Source of the DNA: Betaproteobacteria bacterium
GTDB lineage: Bacteria; Pseudomonadota; Gammaproteobacteria; Burkholderiales; Burkholderiaceae_D
DNA length: 56,008 nt
NCBI GenBank assembly: GCA_016868055.1
Contig: VGHX01000007.1
Coordinates: forward strand, 1-56,008
Reading direction: 5' to 3'
Below are positions 38,399-46,894 of this stretch, in pieces. Position 1 is the stretch's first letter. Each line of letters begins with the position of its first letter. A program made the translations under genes and the position numbers. Under the pieces are notes generated by a model. The model did no database searches. It was not told the DNA's origin and worked only from the letters and a program-made list of their open reading frames with translations.

Positions 38399-39313
38399 CT
38401 AACTTGAATTCGCCTGGTATTCACCGGGCGATTTTTTTTGCTGGTCGGAGCGCGTAGTGATTCCGCGCGCCAGACCATCGACGGAGTAGATCAGCAATCC
38501 AGACCAAATAAGCGCAAAGCCGATAAGCTTGGAGCCACCAAACGGTTCGTTGAAAAGCCAAACGCCGATCAGTAGCTGCAGGCTGGGGCCGATGTACTGT
38601 AGTAGCCCGACCAAATAGAGCGGAATGCGGCGCGCGCCATAAGCAAACAGCAGCAGCGGTATCGCCGTAACAGGTCCGGCGGCGATCAGCAATAACGAAA
38701 GCGGAAGATCACTACCAAACGCATGCGATGAGCCTGCATCGGGCACTAGTAAAAACACGCTTGCGGCAGGAAGAAGTACCAGCGTCTCGACACTTAAGCC
38801 TTCTAACGCGCCCAAGGCAGCGGTTTTTCTGAGCAGGCCGTATAGGCCGAACGTCACCGCTATCACCAAACCGATCCAAGGCAACTGCCCGGCGCTGAAG
38901 GTCAGCCAAATCACACCACAGGCCGCCAAGGCGACAGCGATCCACTGTGTCAGGCGCAGGCGCTCGCCCAAGCCAATACCGAACAGCACGTTGAACAATG
39001 GCGCGATGAAATAACCCAGGCTCGCATCAATGATGTGATCGTGGTTTACCGACCAGATATACACCACCCAATTGGTAGCAAGCATCAGCGCGCTGGTGAC
39101 AAAAGTGATGATGATGCGTGGCTTGGCTCGCACCAACGCCAGCCAATCCCATTGCCGCCGAAGAGCAAGCAAGCTCATCAATAGCACGACTGACCACAGT
39201 ACGCGATGTGACAAAATTTCTAACGACGGCACCTGCTTCAGGAGTCTTAAATACAATGGGAAAACACCCCACAACGTAAAAGCAGTACCGGCGGCAATTA
39301 CGCCCCTCAGCAT
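38399..39313 (-). CDS. rarD: EamA-family transporter RarD
   Basis: A 304-residue inner-membrane protein with about ten helices. It belongs to the drug/metabolite transporter superfamily; ITFVTSALMLATNWVVYIWSV and SLGYFIAPLFNVLFGI are RarD-typical. ATG 39313 with GAGG six bases upstream is chosen; the longer frame back to 39514 overlaps the photolyase gene. It begins seven bases after the photolyase stop, so it may be cotranscribed with the photolyase genes. RarD is linked to chloramphenicol sensitivity in enterobacteria; the substrate is unknown. Confidence 0.85.
   Translation of the reverse strand: MLRGVIAAGTAFTLWGVFPLYLRLLKQVPSLEILSHRVLWSVVLLMSLLALRRQWDWLALVRAKPRIIITFVTSALMLATNWVVYIWSVNHDHIIDASLGYFIAPLFNVLFGIGLGERLRLTQWIAVALAACGVIWLTFSAGQLPWIGLVIAVTFGLYGLLRKTAALGALEGLSVETLVLLPAASVFLLVPDAGSSHAFGSDLPLSLLLIAAGPVTAIPLLLFAYGARRIPLYLVGLLQYIGPSLQLLIGVWLFNEPFGGSKLIGFALIWSGLLIYSVDGLARGITTRSDQQKKSPGEYQANSS
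38410..38439 (+). terminator. Rho-independent terminator of the orphan gene, inside the rarD 3' end
   Basis: Stem TCGCCTGGT (38410-38418) / ACCGGGCGA (38423-38431) with one T-G wobble, loop ATTC, followed by eight T's (38432-38439). It works for the plus strand and lies within the last codons of the convergent rarD gene. Confidence 0.8.
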
Positions 39314-39320
39314 GATAGCC

Positions 39321-40904
39321 TCATTCCAGTCCGAGGGATAACTGCGGTGTTGATGGTGCCTCTGCCTTGGTTGAGTCTGCAGACTTTGGCTTTGACTTGG
39401 ACGGCCGGCGGCCTTCACGCGCTGGGTTGCGGCTGCCATGTTTATCGAAGACGCGCCGTGCTTCTTCGCGTGCTTCAGGTTCGCGGCGCAGTGCCCACAT
39501 GGTCTCGCGTGCATGGCGCGCTGCCGCTAGGTGATCGACGACCGGCTCCGGATACGTGCTGCCAATGATTACCCCGGTGTGTTGCTGAACCGCCGATGGC
39601 ATAGTCCACGGCTCGAAAATAAATTCGTTAGGCACGTTCACAAGTGCGGGTAGCCAGCGCCTGACGAATTCACCGTCCGGGTCTTGATCTTGCGCCTGCT
39701 TGACGGGGTTGTAGATGCGCAGGGTATTGATGCCAGTGACCCCCGACTGCATTTGAATCTGTGAGTAATGAATACCGGGCTCGTAATCAAGAAACTCCTG
39801 AGCCAAGTGCAATGCCGGCTCACGCCAATGATTCCATAGCTGATAGCTTGAAAAGCTCACCAGTAATGCCCGCATTCGAAAGTTGATCCAACCGGTTTCA
39901 GCCAGCATGCGCATGCAGGCATCAATTAAAGGAAAGCCGGTTTCTGCTTTACGCCAGCGCTCGAAGTACTCGCGATTGAAGTGTGGCTCACGCAAGCCAT
40001 CAAAGCCACGATGCATATTGCGCGTTTCAATCTCGGGCTCGGATTCCAGCTTTTGCACAAAGTGGCAACGCCAATGTAGTCGGCTCTCGAAAGACTTTAA
40101 GCCCTCGAGTGCGCCTTTGGGCCTCACGTGTGCAGGCATGGCATTCAGCTCGGCGCGCGTCTTCCACACTTTGTGTACAAGCTCTCTGATCGACAAGCTG
40201 CCGTAGGCAATATGAGGCGACAGCCGCGAACATAAATCTGCTGCCGAGAGTGGGCTCGACATGCCAAAGCGGTAGTGCGACAAGCGCTGTGAAAGAAACT
40301 GCTTCAGCAATTGTGCCGCTTGCTTGCGACCACCTTTTTGCCGCAGAGGTTTATCGTTATCCGGCAGACCCATCCAGTGCGGCAGCATGATGCCATTGGG
40401 CGTCAGCGTGCCCTCTGGTTTGCCTAAGAAATCTGGCGCTGCAAGCGGCGCAGGCTTCATGCGTTGCATCCAGAGATCAGACCACGCGTCACGCGAGCTG
40501 AGTTTGCGAACAACACCATTCGACGGGAATTCTCGCCACATAATGCCGTTGGCGCTGCACCATTCAGCGACGCGCTTGTCGCGCTCGTAAGTAAGTACAT
40601 TCCCCGTTTCTTCATGCGAGTACAGCGCAAATGGCCCGAATGTATCGAGTACTCGCTGAAAGATCGCGATTGCTTCGCCATATTGCGCAAGCAGCGGACT
40701 ACCACGCGCGGACAGGGCTTGGTCAAGCTCGGTCAAACATTCATTGATGAAGCCAATATGTTGCGTAGCGAAATCTGGCGCACGAATCAGGCTGGGCTCG
40801 TAGATATACAGTGGCAGTACTTGACGATGCTTGGCAGCCTCGACCAGCGGCGCATGATCAAACACACGCAGATCGCGCTTGAACCACACGATGCCCAGCT
40901 TCAT
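39321..40904 (-). CDS. Photolyase/cryptochrome-family protein, atypical
   Basis: A 527-residue protein from ATG 40904, which overlaps the stop of the upstream gene (ATGA); ATG 40913 is an alternative. The N-terminal alpha/beta antenna domain starts KLGIVWFKRDLRVFDHAPL. The FAD-binding domain has LSPHIAYGSLSIREL, TGFPLIDACMRMLAETGWINFRMRALLVSF, and then DYEPGIHYSQIQMQSGVTGINTLRIYNP, where classical enzymes have a DGDLASNNxxWQW-like segment. A basic low-complexity C-terminus (RRPSKSKPKSADSTKAEAP) follows. No iron-sulfur cysteine cluster is visible in the C-terminal half. It may be a light-driven repair enzyme or a light sensor. Confidence 0.82.
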   Translation of the reverse strand: MKLGIVWFKRDLRVFDHAPLVEAAKHRQVLPLYIYEPSLIRAPDFATQHIGFINECLTELDQALSARGSPLLAQYGEAIAIFQRVLDTFGPFALYSHEETGNVLTYERDKRVAEWCSANGIMWREFPSNGVVRKLSSRDAWSDLWMQRMKPAPLAAPDFLGKPEGTLTPNGIMLPHWMGLPDNDKPLRQKGGRKQAAQLLKQFLSQRLSHYRFGMSSPLSAADLCSRLSPHIAYGSLSIRELVHKVWKTRAELNAMPAHVRPKGALEGLKSFESRLHWRCHFVQKLESEPEIETRNMHRGFDGLREPHFNREYFERWRKAETGFPLIDACMRMLAETGWINFRMRALLVSFSSYQLWNHWREPALHLAQEFLDYEPGIHYSQIQMQSGVTGINTLRIYNPVKQAQDQDPDGEFVRRWLPALVNVPNEFIFEPWTMPSAVQQHTGVIIGSTYPEPVVDHLAAARHARETMWALRREPEAREEARRVFDKHGSRNPAREGRRPSKSKPKSADSTKAEAPSTPQLSLGLE

Positions 40905-42052
40905 CGATGCCATCCCCGTTGTGGGTGGGCTTCGGTACAGTGCGACCAGAATGCAGAAAACGAGCGGCAGGTCTTGGCGGGATTGGCAAACTGCCGCGGC
41001 GCGTCTGCGAGCTGTGTGCACAGCTGCGGCAGCAGACCATCGTAGCCGGGGTTCAGCGTGGCTACTGATTCAACATACGGCGTTTCAGAAAGCATGTCTT
41101 TCAGTTCGTTGAGATCACCGATGAATAGTGCATCCGTGATAGCCATCATTCTATCTGTCACGAACTGCCAGCGCCGCGCTGACCATAGGAAGCGCGCATG
41201 GAAGGGCAGGTGGATGACGCCAATACGAAGCCCATCGAAGGAGCGCTGAGATAGCATCCAAGGATGAACCAACTGAACGCGCTCAGCTTTTGGGATGGTC
41301 GATGTTATCAGGGCGGATGGTCTCGTAAGCAGACCGGGCTCTTCCACCCCCACCAATGACGGTACCGTGTTGATAGTTTGATTGCGTCGCGCGATCTGGT
41401 CGAGATGCTCGTAGCTGGTATCCAGCACGCTTCCGGCACAGTGCCAGTCGGCCGCGGCGTAGTGCGCAACATTTTCGGCGTTGAACAGGTAGGGCTTGCT
41501 ACTGAAAGTGGCGGCGACCCACTGCCACGATAGATGGTTTGACGCCAGATCGCCGTCCAGCAGATGGGCAAACATCCAATCCGCACCCATGCGCCAGTGT
41601 ATTTTGCGCAAATGAATGACATAGCTTGCCAGCCACATGCGCGCATGATTATGCAAATAACCGGTGGCGTACAGCTGATGCACGGCGCGATCAATCACCG
41701 CTAGTCCGGTGCGACCTTCACGGATATCGTCGGGCAGCTCGTCGGCGTAGCGTACGCCCGGGAGGCCAGGCCGCATATCTGAAAGAATTCGCTCGTCCTC
41801 GCGGCTCCACACGTGATGAAAAAATTCACGCCAGCCGAATTCAAACGCCAGTTTGTCGGAGAGCTTGAGTTTCGGCAGCCGCTCAAATAATTCCGGGATC
41901 GTGATGAAACCGTGTGTGATGTACGGCGATAGTCGTGTGACCCTGCCATTGAGATGATTACGGGTTTTGCCATACGCGGCGACGTCGATCGCCGACAGCC
42001 GCGCATGAAGGGCGGTGTCGGTCGGTTCGAAATGTTCAGGTTTGAGACGCAT
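40901..42052 (-). CDS. Photolyase-like protein with the FAD domain first
   Basis: A 383-residue protein that begins directly in the photolyase FAD-binding domain: VTRLSPYITHGFITIPELF, FEFGWREFFHHVW, GLAVIDRAVHQLYATGYLHNHARMW and LLDGDLASNHLSWQWVAATF are all near-canonical for class I photolyases. It lacks the N-terminal alpha/beta antenna domain. After about residue 235 comes a segment (ERVQLVHPWML, LRIGVIHLPFH, ITDALFIGDLNELKDML) that could be an alpha/beta domain, so the order of domains may be reversed. The start codon lies within a hairpin. It is 39 bases downstream of the orphan gene with the HrpL box and overlaps the next photolyase gene by four bases. Confidence 0.78.
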   Translation of the reverse strand: MRLKPEHFEPTDTALHARLSAIDVAAYGKTRNHLNGRVTRLSPYITHGFITIPELFERLPKLKLSDKLAFEFGWREFFHHVWSREDERILSDMRPGLPGVRYADELPDDIREGRTGLAVIDRAVHQLYATGYLHNHARMWLASYVIHLRKIHWRMGADWMFAHLLDGDLASNHLSWQWVAATFSSKPYLFNAENVAHYAAADWHCAGSVLDTSYEHLDQIARRNQTINTVPSLVGVEEPGLLTRPSALITSTIPKAERVQLVHPWMLSQRSFDGLRIGVIHLPFHARFLWSARRWQFVTDRMMAITDALFIGDLNELKDMLSETPYVESVATLNPGYDGLLPQLCTQLADAPRQFANPAKTCRSFSAFWSHCTEAHPQRGWHR

Positions 42053-42091: not shown

Positions 42092-43444
42092 TTATTGCAT
42101 CGGGCCGCGAAGAAAATCACGGTAATAGGCGGGTAGTTCATTAAGAACTTCCGTCGCTTCAAAAGGAGGTAGCGTCTCGATCCAACCCTGTAGGTGTCTA
42201 CATAACTCGGCGCCGTTCTTTGACAAGACGAAGGCTTGTTGATTAAGGTTGTTGGAAGGTGCAACTCCTAATATTTCGGTATACCTGTAGGCTGATCCGG
42301 TTACCTTGGTGCACGCTCGTATCAGTTTTTCATCAAAATATAATTCCTTCATCTGCTTGATACAGCCAACGATGAAACTTGTAAGTAAATTCCAAGCTTC
42401 ATTATGCTTCAAAAAAGAAAGTTGGTCATATTCGAAAGCATATTCGAGTGCAAGATAAATATCCAGTATCGACTCTTTGCGTTTTTCTGGGGGCATTGCG
42501 CGTAGCTGATTGAAAATTTCATTCGTGAATTCTTCGCTGCCCATGGCAGCCAATGGCAACAAGTCCGTAATCTTGACATCACGAATGATATCGTTGACGA
42601 AACCCATCTCTTCGCAAAAGGTACGAATGGAAGACCTGCCATCATACTTGAGGCCAGCCAGATCTATTTCAAGTAAAAGAGGTAGGGAGTTGTTAAGTAT
42701 TTTATGTTCGACCAGTAGCTTTAGTTGGGTCACTGTAAACTGGGTGCGCATTTTCTGCGATTGACCTTTTCTTTGCGTGGCAGGCCTGAGAAGAGGCAAT
42801 AACGCTTGTACGTCTTTCTCAAATCGCTCCGGACCTCGGGCCTCTTTCTCTGTTTTGAGGTTTTCTATGATCCATTCATTAACCTTAGATACATCCTTGC
42901 CATAAACCTTATTGTCTGACCAGCAAAGTACAGCCAGGTTGGCCGCGAGGCGCGTGTCAGGCGACAATGTCGTGAGGAGTAGCTGGTCGTAGATGCCGCC
43001 GGCTGCCAACTTGTCTAGGTACCTGCGGACATAATTAGCCTCGACTTTGCCGCTACCGGAAATCTTCATCAGATCCGCTCTCAGTCGTGGGAAGCGGCGC
43101 TCAGAATGCGCAGCATCCACGCTGAAATAACCCTGGCGACTGGTCAGGATCATGCCTTTCCACTCGGCGGCGGATTTGAGCTCGCTTGCGATCCTGGTGG
43201 TGACGTCGAGCGGCAGCGTCCAGTGGAAGCCGGGGTGGTTGAGCTTTACGCTGAATTCGCCGGCGGCGATTTCTTTTCGGCATCCCAACAGTGCCAGCAG
43301 GCTCTGCTTCTCCGACATTGTTGGTGGAACAGCCGGTGTTGGTGAAGGTGTGTCTGTGACGGTGGCTTCATTGACGCGAGCGCGCGTGGCAGCGGCGCCG
43401 TAAACTTGGTGAGTGTCAGGCCGTTCAAATGTTGTGCGTTTCAT
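42092..43444 (-). CDS. Orphan protein behind a HrpL-type promoter, candidate type III effector
   Basis: Not recognised. 450 residues from ATG 43444; ATG 43447 immediately before it is equally possible, with GAGGA just upstream. Residues 1-45 are Thr/Ala/Pro-rich and probably disordered (TRARVNEATVTDTPSPTPAV). The rest is largely helical, with Leu-rich segments (LKLLVEHKILNNSLPLLLEI, ILDIYLALEYAF) and no membrane helix or known catalytic motif. Composition is mosaic: lines sampled near the 5' end hold 57-58% G+C, whereas several in the 3' half hold 32-38%. The promoter match GGAACC-N15-CCACNNA at 43472-43499 is the strongest functional clue. The photolyase genes follow at 39 bases. A type III effector fits all this but is inferred. 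Confidence 0.75.
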   Translation of the reverse strand: MKRTTFERPDTHQVYGAAATRARVNEATVTDTPSPTPAVPPTMSEKQSLLALLGCRKEIAAGEFSVKLNHPGFHWTLPLDVTTRIASELKSAAEWKGMILTSRQGYFSVDAAHSERRFPRLRADLMKISGSGKVEANYVRRYLDKLAAGGIYDQLLLTTLSPDTRLAANLAVLCWSDNKVYGKDVSKVNEWIIENLKTEKEARGPERFEKDVQALLPLLRPATQRKGQSQKMRTQFTVTQLKLLVEHKILNNSLPLLLEIDLAGLKYDGRSSIRTFCEEMGFVNDIIRDVKITDLLPLAAMGSEEFTNEIFNQLRAMPPEKRKESILDIYLALEYAFEYDQLSFLKHNEAWNLLTSFIVGCIKQMKELYFDEKLIRACTKVTGSAYRYTEILGVAPSNNLNQQAFVLSKNGAELCRHLQGWIETLPPFEATEVLNELPAYYRDFLRGPMQ

Positions 43445-43471
43445 CATGGTCCTCGTTGAATAAGCGAGGAC

Positions 43472-43499
43472 TAGGTGGCAGGTGTATTGCGCGGGTTCC
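43472..43499 (-). promoter_or_regulatory. HrpL-type (hrp box) promoter
   Basis: On the minus strand: GGAACC (43494-43499), 15 bases, CCACCTA (43472-43478). This matches the HrpL ECF sigma consensus GGAACC-N15/16-CCACNNA at all eleven fixed positions. The box ends 27 bases before ATG 43444, leaving room for a transcript start, a short leader and the GAGGA ribosome site. It is the only full match I found in the window. Confidence 0.75.
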
Positions 43500-43615: not shown

Positions 43616-46600
43616 TTACATGCTGCGTCGGTACTGCCCACCTACCTCGAACAAGGCCTCGGTGATTTGTCCTAGCGAACAGACGCGTGCCGCTTTCATT
43701 AGCTGCGCGAACACGTTTTCGTCATTAATCGCAGCTTGCTGGAGCGCGGCCAAGGCCTTGGGCGCCTGGTCTTTGTGCCGCACATGAAAATCAGTCAGAC
43801 GCTTCAGCTGCGATTGCTTTTCGTCTTCAGTCGAGCGCGCCAGCGCAAGCGCCTGCGGGACGGTATCGCCATTAGGATTACGGAACGTATTCACGCCGAT
43901 GATGGGTAAGCTACCGTCATGCTTCTTGTGCTCGTACAGCAGCGACTCTTCCTGAATCTTGCTGCGCTGGTAGCCGGTTTCCATGGCACCCAGTACGCCG
44001 CCGCGCTCGGCAATACGCTCGAATTCTTGCAGCACCGCTTCCTCAACCAGATCGGTCAACTCATCAAGTACAAATGCGCCTTGGTTCGGGTTCTCGTTTT
44101 TCGCCAGGCCCCACTCGCGGTTGATGATCAGCTGTATCGCTAAAGCTCTGCGTACTGATTCATCGGTAGGCGTGGTGATCGCTTCGTCATACGCATTGGT
44201 ATGCAGCGAGTTGCAGTTGTCGTAGATCGCGATTAGCGCTTGCAGTGTGGTGCGGATATCATTGAAGTCAACTTCCTGCGCATGCAGCGAACGACCGGAC
44301 GTTTGAATGTGGTACTTGAGTTTCTGGCTCCTGTCGTTAGCGCCGTATTTTTCCTTCATCGTCACCGCCCAAATGCGGCGCGCGACGCGACCAAGCACGG
44401 TGTATTCCGGGTCCATGCCGTTTGAAAAGAAGAACGACAGGTTTGGCGCGAAGTCATCAATATGCATACCGCGCGCGAGATAGGCTTCAACAAACGTAAA
44501 GCCGTTTGATAGCGTGAATGCAAGCTGCGAGATGGGATTGGCACCGGCTTCGGCGATGTGATAACCCGAGATAGAGACTGAATAGAAATTGCGTACCTGA
44601 TGATCGACAAAGTATTGCTGTATGTCGCCCATGACCTTGAGTGAAAATTCGGTCGAGAAAATGCAGGTATTTTGGCCTTGGTCTTCTTTCAGAATATCGG
44701 CCTGCACCGTGCCACGAACGTTTTTCAGTACCCATGCCTTGACTTGCGCCGCTTCCTCCGCAGTCGGCTCCCGTCCTTTCTCGGAACGGAATTTATCGAG
44801 CTGCTGGTCGATTGCGGTATTCATGAAGAAGGCCAGTATCGTCGGTGCAGGGCCATTAATCGTCATCGATACCGAGGTGGTCGGATCGCATAGATCAAAG
44901 CCGTCATAGAGCACCTTCATGTCATCCAGCGTCGCGATCGATACCCCCGAGTTGCCGACCTTGCCGTAAATATCCGGGCGTAGCGCGGGGTCAGCACCAT
45001 ACAGTGTGACCGAGTCAAACGCGGTGGATAAGCGCTTGGCTGGCATACCTTCGGATACCAGCTTGAAACGGCGATTGGTGCGAAACGCATCGCCTTCGCC
45101 CGCAAACATACGGGTGGGGTCTTCATTCTCTCGCTTGAATGGAAACACCCCTGCAGTGAACGGAAAGTACCCGGGCAGATTTTCTTTCGTTAACCAGCGC
45201 AACAAATCGCCATGATCCGCATACTTCGGCAACGAGACCTTGCGCACACGATTACCTGAGAGGGTCTCGGTGTACAGACGAGTGCGGATTTCCTTGTCAC
45301 GGATTTTGACGACATGCTCGTCGCCTTCGTAGTGGCTGCGAATTTCCGGCCAAGCTGCCAATGCCTGACGTGCATCTGCATCCAGCGCGTGTTCACGCTG
45401 TGTAATCAACCCATCAATATCTGCCGCCTTGCCGGCGGCTGCCAGCATGCGCTTAGCTTCTGACAACTGCTGATGCTCACGCGCGATGATCGCTTGTTTT
45501 TCAACACGTCGGTGATACGAGCGTACGGTGTCGGCAATCTCGGCCAGGTATCGGCTACGTGCCGGTGGCACGATGGCATGACGGCCGCTGGAGAAGCGCG
45601 CTGCCACTGGCGCCAGTTTGCCAGCTTGTGTTTGAAGGCCACGTGCCTGCAGCAGTGGCAGCAGGCCGTGATACAGCGCACTGACGCCGTCATCGTTGAA
45701 ACGCGACGCTTGTGTGCCTAAGACGGGCATTTGCTCAGGCGTTTGTGTCCATGCTTCGCGGTTGCGCTGCACTTGTTTCGCGACATCGCGCAGTGCGTCT
45801 TGAGCGCCTTTGCGGTCGAATTTATTGATCGCAATCGCATCCGCAAAATCGAGCATATCGATTTTTTCCAGCTGCGATGCGGCGCCGAACTCTGGCGTCA
45901 TGACATACAAGCTGACATCCACATGCGGCACGATCGCCGCATCACCTTGGCCGATACCGGAGGTTTCAACAATCACCAGATCAAAGCCGGCGGCACGACA
46001 AGCCGCAATCACATCAGGTAGCGCCTGCGATATTTCCGAGCCAGCCTCGCGCGTCGCGAGTGAGCGCATGAAGACACGGCTATTGCCATGCCATGGGCTG
46101 ATGGCATTCATTCGAATACGATCGCCCAGCAGCGCGCCACCCGATTTTCGACGTGAAGGATCGATCGATATCAACGCAATGTTCAATGCGTCACTTTGAT
46201 CGATTCGCAGACGTCGTATCAATTCGTCAGTTAATGACGACTTACCCGCGCCGCCTGTACCCGTAATGCCGAGCGCAGGTATATTCTTTTGCTTGTCTGC
46301 TTCATGCAGCGCAGCGCGAAGTTCAGACGAGACTTTATTGTTTTCCAATGCCGTGATTAGTTGCGCCAGTGGTCTGTGACGATCTGCAATGTCTCCTTGC
46401 TGTAGTGCGCTGATACTGGTTGGGGCGTAAGTCGACAGATCGCTGTCGCAGGTTTGAACCATGTAAGAGATCATGCCAACCAGGCCCATGCGTTGCCCAT
46501 CTTCCGGGCTAAAAATCCGCGTGACCCCGTACTCGTGCAGTTCATTGATCTCGTTGGCGACGATCACACCGCCACCACCACCAAATACCTTGATGTGCGC

Positions 46601-46894
46601 GCCACCTCGCTGCCGCAGCAAATCGATCGTGTATTTGAAGTACTCGAGATGGCCACCCTGATAACTCGATACGGCAATGCCGTGGGCGTCTTCCTGCAAA
46701 GCAGCGGTCACAATGTCATCCACCGAACGGTTATGTCCTAGGTGAATTACCTCAGCGCCTTGCGACATCAGAATACGGCGCATGATGTTGATGGAGGCGT
46801 CGTGACCATCAAATAAGGAAGCTGCAGTGACAAAGCGCACTTTGTTTTGAGGCGTGTAAGCGGTGAGGCTCTGCGCGACGGAAAGGTCGGTCAT
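43616..46894 (-). CDS. icmF: Fused isobutyryl-CoA mutase IcmF
   Basis: A 1092-residue adenosylcobalamin enzyme. Domains in order: B12-binding domain with the lower-ligand motif LFDGHDAS (His31) and [11 protein letters not shown]; a MeaB-like G-protein domain with [17 protein letters not shown]; and the mutase TIM barrel ([66 protein letters not shown]). It interconverts isobutyryl-CoA and n-butyryl-CoA; some family members also act on isovaleryl-/pivalyl-CoA. An operator like that of liuR lies 52-73 bases upstream. The length is normal. Confidence 0.95.

What the first reader, a model, noticed from the sequence alone, without database searches (positions are those of the whole stretch)
43472..43499. 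Perfect HrpL box in front of an unrecognised gene
The minus strand carries GGAACC-N15-CCACCTA, matching the HrpL-dependent promoter consensus at every fixed base, ending 27 bases upstream of an ATG with a ribosome site. Eleven fixed bases with two allowed spacings should occur by chance about 0.05 times in both strands of 56 kb, and this one is intergenic, correctly oriented and at the right distance. It implies a HrpL-type ECF sigma factor and a group I Hrp type III system elsewhere in the genome, a kind known from few betaproteobacteria (for example Herbaspirillum).
Basis: partly seen in the sequence, partly recalled or inferred. Interest (0 to 1): 0.85.

Follow-up and report, generated by a model that had tools for sequence, protein, structure and literature searches.

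The report
Secretion-system promoter orphaned by deletion
A promoter-like DNA signal in an uncultured bacterium turns out to belong to the control circuit of a protein-injection machine, but in this genome a core part of the machine and half of its presumed controlling protein are missing, cut out at a position shared by many related species.

Summary
The box is real: GGAACC-N15-CCACCTA at 43472-43499 (-), expected 0.03 times by chance in the window. It is most likely a genuine promoter of a type III secretion (T3SS) regulon read by an ECF sigma factor, but not evidence for HrpL or a group I Hrp system. Four of 21 genus genomes hold SctV of a Ysc-type T3SS; in two the whole cluster is seen between hom and thrC, with an ECF sigma gene at its thrC end. 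T3SS clusters carry the same box at the window's spacing: 19 times, against 0-5 at 17 other spacings. In the window's genome it also precedes two chaperone genes, an ankyrin gene and another unknown gene. Whole-genome counts, though, do not exceed the reversed control. In that genome sctV was not found, and the sigma is cut after region 2 and fused in frame to the SctV C-terminus. Ten of 18 readable genomes share this junction to the codon, scattered over the species tree. So the box is probably an orphaned or switched-off effector promoter; how the junction recurs is unexplained.

The parts
43472..43499 (-). ECF/hrp-type box GGAACC-N15-CCACCTA (-35 GGAAC, -10 CCACCTA)
   Evidence: same motif and spacing in T3SS clusters of relatives
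43449..43471 (-). 5' UTR hairpin GTCCTCG-N9-CGAGGAC directly after the box, its 3' arm holding the ribosome site
   Evidence: -10.3 kcal/mol, none of 300 mononucleotide shuffles as low; as strong against shuffles in 2 of 6 homologues (G010a, G003), weak in the other 4
42092..43447 (-). 451-aa ORF (P0001), candidate T3SS effector of unknown fold; alternative start at 43444
   Evidence: found in 5 of 21 genus genomes, own included; no Pfam family over cut-off and no NCBIfam match
43616..46894 (-). icmF-like fused mutase gene upstream (B12-binding, MeaB and mutase domains), the conserved neighbour
   Evidence: Pfam
40901..42052 (-). photolyase-like gene (FAD_binding_7) downstream; this ORF directly follows icmF without the insert in 11 of 19 genus genomes with icmF found
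   Evidence: counted by eye from the listing; Pfam

Best explanation
The box is a promoter recognised by the ECF sigma factor of the genus's Ysc-type T3SS. It drives P0001, a fast-evolving candidate effector, as one member of a scattered effector and chaperone regulon. Transcription would start a few bases after the -10 element, so the mRNA would begin with a hairpin that holds the ribosome site. In the assembled genome of the window, sctV (all but its tail) and sigma region 4 are missing at a precise junction, so in these cells the box should be silent: an orphan or a switched-off promoter. Shown: the box, its spacing-specific enrichment in T3SS clusters, its place before chaperone and ankyrin genes of the same genome, the sigma gene at the T3SS locus, the fused junction. 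Inferred: that this sigma reads the box, that P0001 is secreted, the transcript start.
For: T3SS clusters and their ends from seven genomes (119,008 bases) hold 19 GGAAC-N16-NNACNNA, against 0-5 at each of the 17 other spacers from 8 to 25 and a shuffled mean of 2.2 (maximum 7 of 200 shuffles). For YYACNNA it is 14, against a mean of 0.45 (maximum 4). A control of 150 kb (the window and flanks, with sctD/needle remnants in three loci) holds 2 and 1, the window box included. 12 of the 19 lie in no ORF of 70 aa or more, each within 171 nt of the next start on its strand. The five distant homologues of P0001 read carry GGAACT or GGAACC, N15, TTACATA or TTACAGA at 53-55 nt from the ATG (window 52). 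In the own genome 5 of 11 relaxed matches lie about 24-66 nt before a start: P0001, an ankyrin ORF, a CesT operon, a SycD/LcrH-like chaperone and an unknown ORF. A full ECF sigma gene sits at the T3SS end in G007 and G015 and beside thrC in 5 more genomes.
Against: The closest orthologue, G008 (81% identity), has a degenerate box (TGAACT-N15-ATACATA). Whole-genome counts run against enrichment: own genome 11, reversed control 21; genus, strict form, 48 against 136, fewer than the control in 20 of 21 genomes and equal in one. The reversed pattern has another composition, so it is a rough control. Two of the 19 cluster boxes lie inside long genes (secretin, sctD), among them G011's only one; none was found in the short G004 and G009 pieces. 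No binding or expression data exist. Another ECF sigma, about 33% identical, exists in the own genome and others and could read the box.
Confidence: 0.8

Rival explanations
1. A true HrpL box: an HrpL orthologue and a group I Hrp T3SS control it, as proposed for Herbaspirillum.
For: The box matches the HrpL consensus exactly. A published wider hrp box, GGAACC/T-N15/16-C/T/GCACNNA, and the search expression of the same paper cover many T3SS boxes of this genus (passages). Herbaspirillum, of the same family (recalled), has hrpL and such boxes (passages).
Against: The T3SS found is Ysc-type with SctX/SctY, SctV closest to LcrD among solved structures. Among the FHIPEP matches compared in the genus, SctV is only of this type, the rest nearer to FlhA.
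Confidence: 0.07
2. A chance match in an intergenic spacer; P0001 is read through from icmF.
For: The nearest orthologue lacks a good box; whole-genome counts are below the reversed control; only 168 nt separate the genes, so readthrough is possible.
Against: Spacing-specific enrichment in T3SS clusters and five promoter-placed boxes in the same genome, three of the other four before chaperone or ankyrin genes; distant homologues at the same place carry GGAAC-type boxes.
Confidence: 0.1
3. The promoter is live in part of the window's own population: the T3SS is excised in some cells but intact in others, and the MAG shows only one form.
For: In G018 and G019 a contig ends where fused and intact sequences would part, and another contig starts with its last 114 or 121 nt and runs on into the fused tail. 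The SctV tail shows 56 synonymous against 1 nonsynonymous codon differences over 6 pairs. sctD and the needle-like ORF stay open in the four fused loci listed with both (G003, G018, G019, G020).
Against: The reciprocal (circle) junction was found in 0 of 21 genomes and no viral contig. No recombinase was recognised among the cluster genes listed or the ten scanned, save one integrase-core transposase in G007. No such contig fork was seen in G000 itself.
Confidence: 0.35

Closest known systems
HrpL / hrp box (Pseudomonas, Erwinia, Dickeya, Herbaspirillum)
   Same: ECF sigma boxes of the form GGAACC/T-N15/16-NCACNNA before T3SS operons and effectors (passages of PMC8809351, and PMC3487950)
   Different: Here the T3SS is Ysc-type, the -10 is looser (TTACATA is common), and no HrpL model was among the matches shown
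BtrS of Bordetella
   Same: An ECF sigma that activates the bsc T3SS locus and a distant effector gene (passages of PMC10732220, and PMC2788067); a betaproteobacterium too (recalled)
   Different: BtrS was not compared in sequence here; the passages seen give no BtrS promoter motif and no excision
Programmed excisions such as SP-beta/spsM in Bacillus subtilis
   Same: Precise excision of a large element that joins two gene parts (search listing and abstract start of PMC4191935)
   Different: Here the two sites share no word of 10 bases or more within 400 bases in the three genomes fully compared, no recombinase is known, and reversibility is unproven

Membership tests
HrpL regulon (hrp box) | box GGAACC-N15/16-CCACNNA upstream of a gene | tested here: met
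   24 or 27 nt before the start
HrpL regulon (hrp box) | HrpL orthologue in the genome | tested here: inconclusive
   T3SS-linked ECF sigma found in the genus but truncated in the own genome; orthology to HrpL could not be tested, no HrpL sequence or model was at hand
HrpL regulon (hrp box) | group I Hrp T3SS | tested here: not met
   SctX, SctY, SctD and SctV of Ysc type; LcrD is the best PDB match; tested on G015
Ysc-type T3SS (in the genus) | SctV, SctN, SctC, SctR, SctU, SctD, SctX, SctY over an NCBIfam cut-off | tested here: met
   genome G015; the needle-like ORF is below Pfam's cut-off (G020)
Ysc-type T3SS (in the window's genome) | sctV present | tested here: not met
   only FlhA found; other apparatus genes were not searched in G000
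T3SS effector (P0001) | co-regulation with the T3SS | tested here: inconclusive
   shares the box; no expression data
T3SS effector (P0001) | secretion through the T3SS | not testable with these tools
   needs an assay
F-box protein (P0001) | F-box domain near the N-terminus | tested here: inconclusive
   an F-box-like LPxDVxxxI motif by eye only; no F-box model among Pfam matches of 7 homologues up to E 10; fold model too poor to judge, pLDDT 49.9

The most novel reading that the evidence does not exclude
The T3SS of this genus is switched off by a site-specific, recurrent excision of about 30 kb that runs from inside its own ECF sigma gene to inside sctV. It leaves an in-frame sigma-region-2::SctV-tail fusion in the chromosome and orphans the scattered effector promoters, the window box among them; both states coexist within species.
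Probability: 0.3. Interest if true: 0.92.

Novelty: new variant of a known kind. Interest (0 to 1): 0.75.

Why it matters
It gives an uncultured Oxalobacteraceae genus (one record title bears the name of a lake, Erken; that it is a lake is recalled) a T3SS and a box-marked list of candidate effectors, pointing to unknown eukaryotic partners. It suggests a hrp-type box working with a Ysc-type T3SS. It also exposes presence or absence of a T3SS at one codon-exact junction in many species, which read mapping can test and which could reveal a new way to turn a secretion system off for good or for a time.

Tried and rejected
F-box reading of P0001: motif by eye only; Pfam gave no F-box model and the AlphaFold2 model was poor (pLDDT 49.9), so no fold search was run.

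Deletion as a one-off scar in G008: dropped when the same junction turned up in ten genomes.

Homologous recombination at the junction: in G015, G001 and G011 the sigma and sctV sites share no exact word of 10 bases or more within 400 bases, and 16, 19 and 17 of the 60 bases around the junction match. For G007 the fetched piece held only 3 bases of sigma past the junction, so its values (one shared 10-mer, 7 matches) are incomplete.

Import of one fused allele across species: flanks on both sides track mostly the species neighbours, not the state. G015/G020 show a local dip on the tail side, so an old polymorphism is not excluded.

Assembly artefact: without a shared k-mer an assembler would hardly join the two sites in so many MAGs (inference); no reads were seen.

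Counting boxes in whole genomes: fewer than the reversed pattern. A binomial figure for 5 of 11 rests on assumed background rates of 3-10% and is not used.

Literature: searches. No listed paper treats this genus's T3SS or such an excision by its title or abstract start; only listings and the passages named were read.

Full report
Observation. The box GGAACC-N15-CCACCTA is present at 43472-43499 on the minus strand; chance expectation in the window is 0.03. It lies between an icmF-like gene (Pfam domains) and a 451-aa ORF, P0001, 24 nt before the first ATG and 27 before the second. P0001 has no Pfam family over cut-off and no NCBIfam match.

Organism. The window is one contig (C7) of a 2.71-Mb genome in 195 contigs, given as 99% complete. 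Four congeners could be named from record titles: Burkholderiaceae, Oxalobacteraceae (two) and Noviherbaspirillum MAGs. 21 genus genomes, the own included, were searched.

The gene. P0001 or a homologue was found in 5 of 21 genus genomes and in the same 5 of 56 genomes of genus, family and order. In the loci read they lie beside icmF, or beside icmF remains in tandem copies on short contigs. In 11 of 19 genomes with icmF found, the photolyase-like ORF follows icmF directly (counted by eye). The orthologue in G008 (81% identity) has TGAACT-N15-ATACATA at the box place. The five distant copies (about 25% identity) have GGAACT (4) or GGAACC (1), N15, TTACATA (2) or TTACAGA (3).

The system behind the box. 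An exact search for GGAACT-N15-TTACATA in the genus gave 5 matches in 5 of 21 genomes: two upstream of P0001 homologues, two before T3SS operons with LcrH/SycD-like genes (G001, G015) and one before a 155-aa ORF (G016). SctV (not FlhA) is present in G001, G007, G011 and G015, 4 of 21. In G007 and G015 the whole T3SS is seen between hom and thrC; in G001 and G011 it is split over contigs (hom and thrC confirmed by Pfam for G015). In G015 SctV, SctN, SctC, SctR, SctU, SctD, SctX and SctY pass an NCBIfam cut-off and an SseC-like translocator passes Pfam's. An ECF sigma gene lies at the thrC end, divergent from thrC; its region 2 spans residues 81-145.

The box is the T3SS box. In 119,008 bases of T3SS clusters and their ends from seven genomes, GGAAC-N16-NNACNNA occurs 19 times. 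The 17 other spacers from 8 to 25 give 0-5 each; shuffles give 2.2 (maximum 7 of 200). The YYACNNA form gives 14 against 0.45 (maximum 4). In 150 kb of other DNA, with the window and with T3SS remnants of three fused genomes, the counts are 2 and 1. Of the 19, 12 lie in no ORF of 70 aa or more, two lie inside long genes (secretin, sctD), five overlap shorter or antisense ORFs; by genome G001 3, G007 6, G015 6, G006 3, G011 1. The genus-wide search with YYACNTA gave 48 places against 136 for the reversed control. Ten of the 48 had been read; the other 38 were fetched. Five precede 155-aa ORFs of one look (L156, L160, L171, L176, L190; L156 is CesT by Pfam). Others precede ankyrin ORFs (L169, L185) or tandem unknown ORFs (L161). 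Others lie inside genes or before nothing clear, for example L159, L165, L166, L174, L183, L184.

Own genome. Of 11 matches to GGAACN16YYACNNA (reversed control 21), five lie about 24-66 nt before a start: P0001, an ankyrin ORF (C11), a CesT-chaperone operon (C55), a SycD/LcrH-like chaperone (C77; TIGR02552 E 1e-23, below its cut-off) and an unknown ORF (C27). The other six (C1, C18, C20, C24, a second site in C27, C114) are inside ORFs, far from a start or unclear.

The missing machine. sctV was not found in G000. Its T3SS sigma (C89:1216-1656) matches to residue 145, then runs in frame into the last 30-odd residues of SctV. The same codon junction is seen within one contig in G000, G002, G003, G005, G008, G016, G017 and G020. 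In G018 and G019 it is seen across two contigs that overlap by 114 and 121 nt. G013 breaks at the same sigma codon but runs into a needle-like gene (a homologue in G020 matches T3SS_needle_F below cut-off). Seven genomes have the full sigma (G001, G004, G006, G007, G009, G011, G015), four of them with sctV found. G010, G012 and G014 gave no T3SS sigma. So of 21: 10 SctV-fused, 1 otherwise fused, 7 full, 3 unread.

Recurrence. On a thrC+icmF tree of 21 genomes the fused (11, G013 included) or full (7) state needs 7 changes; well-supported branches force 5; shuffled labels need 5.8 on average. Close pairs differ in state: G015/G020 and G001/G017. Flanks on both sides track mostly the species neighbours. 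Tail codons differ 56 times synonymously and once not, over six pairs, two of them fused against full. The sites show no real homology in the three genomes fully compared; the stretch between them is 29.5 kb in G015 and 30.6 kb in G007. No recombinase was recognised in the cluster genes listed or scanned, apart from an integrase-core transposase in G007, and the circle junction was not found. Three readings remain: recurrent site-specific excision, an old two-allele polymorphism kept in many species, or repeated selection for this very fusion. The data do not decide.

Verdict on the finding. The system in the genus is Ysc-type, is most likely read by its own ECF sigma, and is not intact in the assembled genome. 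HrpL orthology is unproven.

Literature seen: passages of PMC8809351, PMC10732220, PMC3487950, PMC2788067; listings only otherwise.

Noticed in passing
G000:C89:1216-1656 (L115; L138:1120-1728) and counterparts in 9 more genomes: ECF sigma region 2 fused in frame to the SctV C-terminal tail at one fixed codon; sctD and a needle-like ORF next to it stay open in the four loci listed with both.
   Followed up: partly
L116 / L140 (G013:C46:5746-6159): Same sigma breakpoint but fused to the C-terminus of a T3SS needle-like gene instead of SctV.
   Followed up: partly
window 43449-43471: A hairpin over the ribosome site starts right after the box (-10.3 kcal/mol); clear in 2 of 6 homologues.
   Followed up: partly
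L161, L162, L154, L157, L175: Box-bearing ORFs that share a motif around GLPDQPDR (by eye), tandem in G008; Pfam shows no family in L175 and a weak TraB match in L161.
   Followed up: no
L004:380-1274: In G008 a toxin-antitoxin-like pair (by eye) sits between icmF and the P0001 orthologue; a similar pair follows icmF in G006 (L033).
   Followed up: no
L005/L008 (G010:C205): Tandem copies of the P0001 homologue with a degraded icmF 3' end between them.
   Followed up: no
window 39321-42052: Two overlapping photolyase-type ORFs in a row downstream of P0001, followed by an EamA transporter ORF (38399-39514); not studied further.
   Followed up: no
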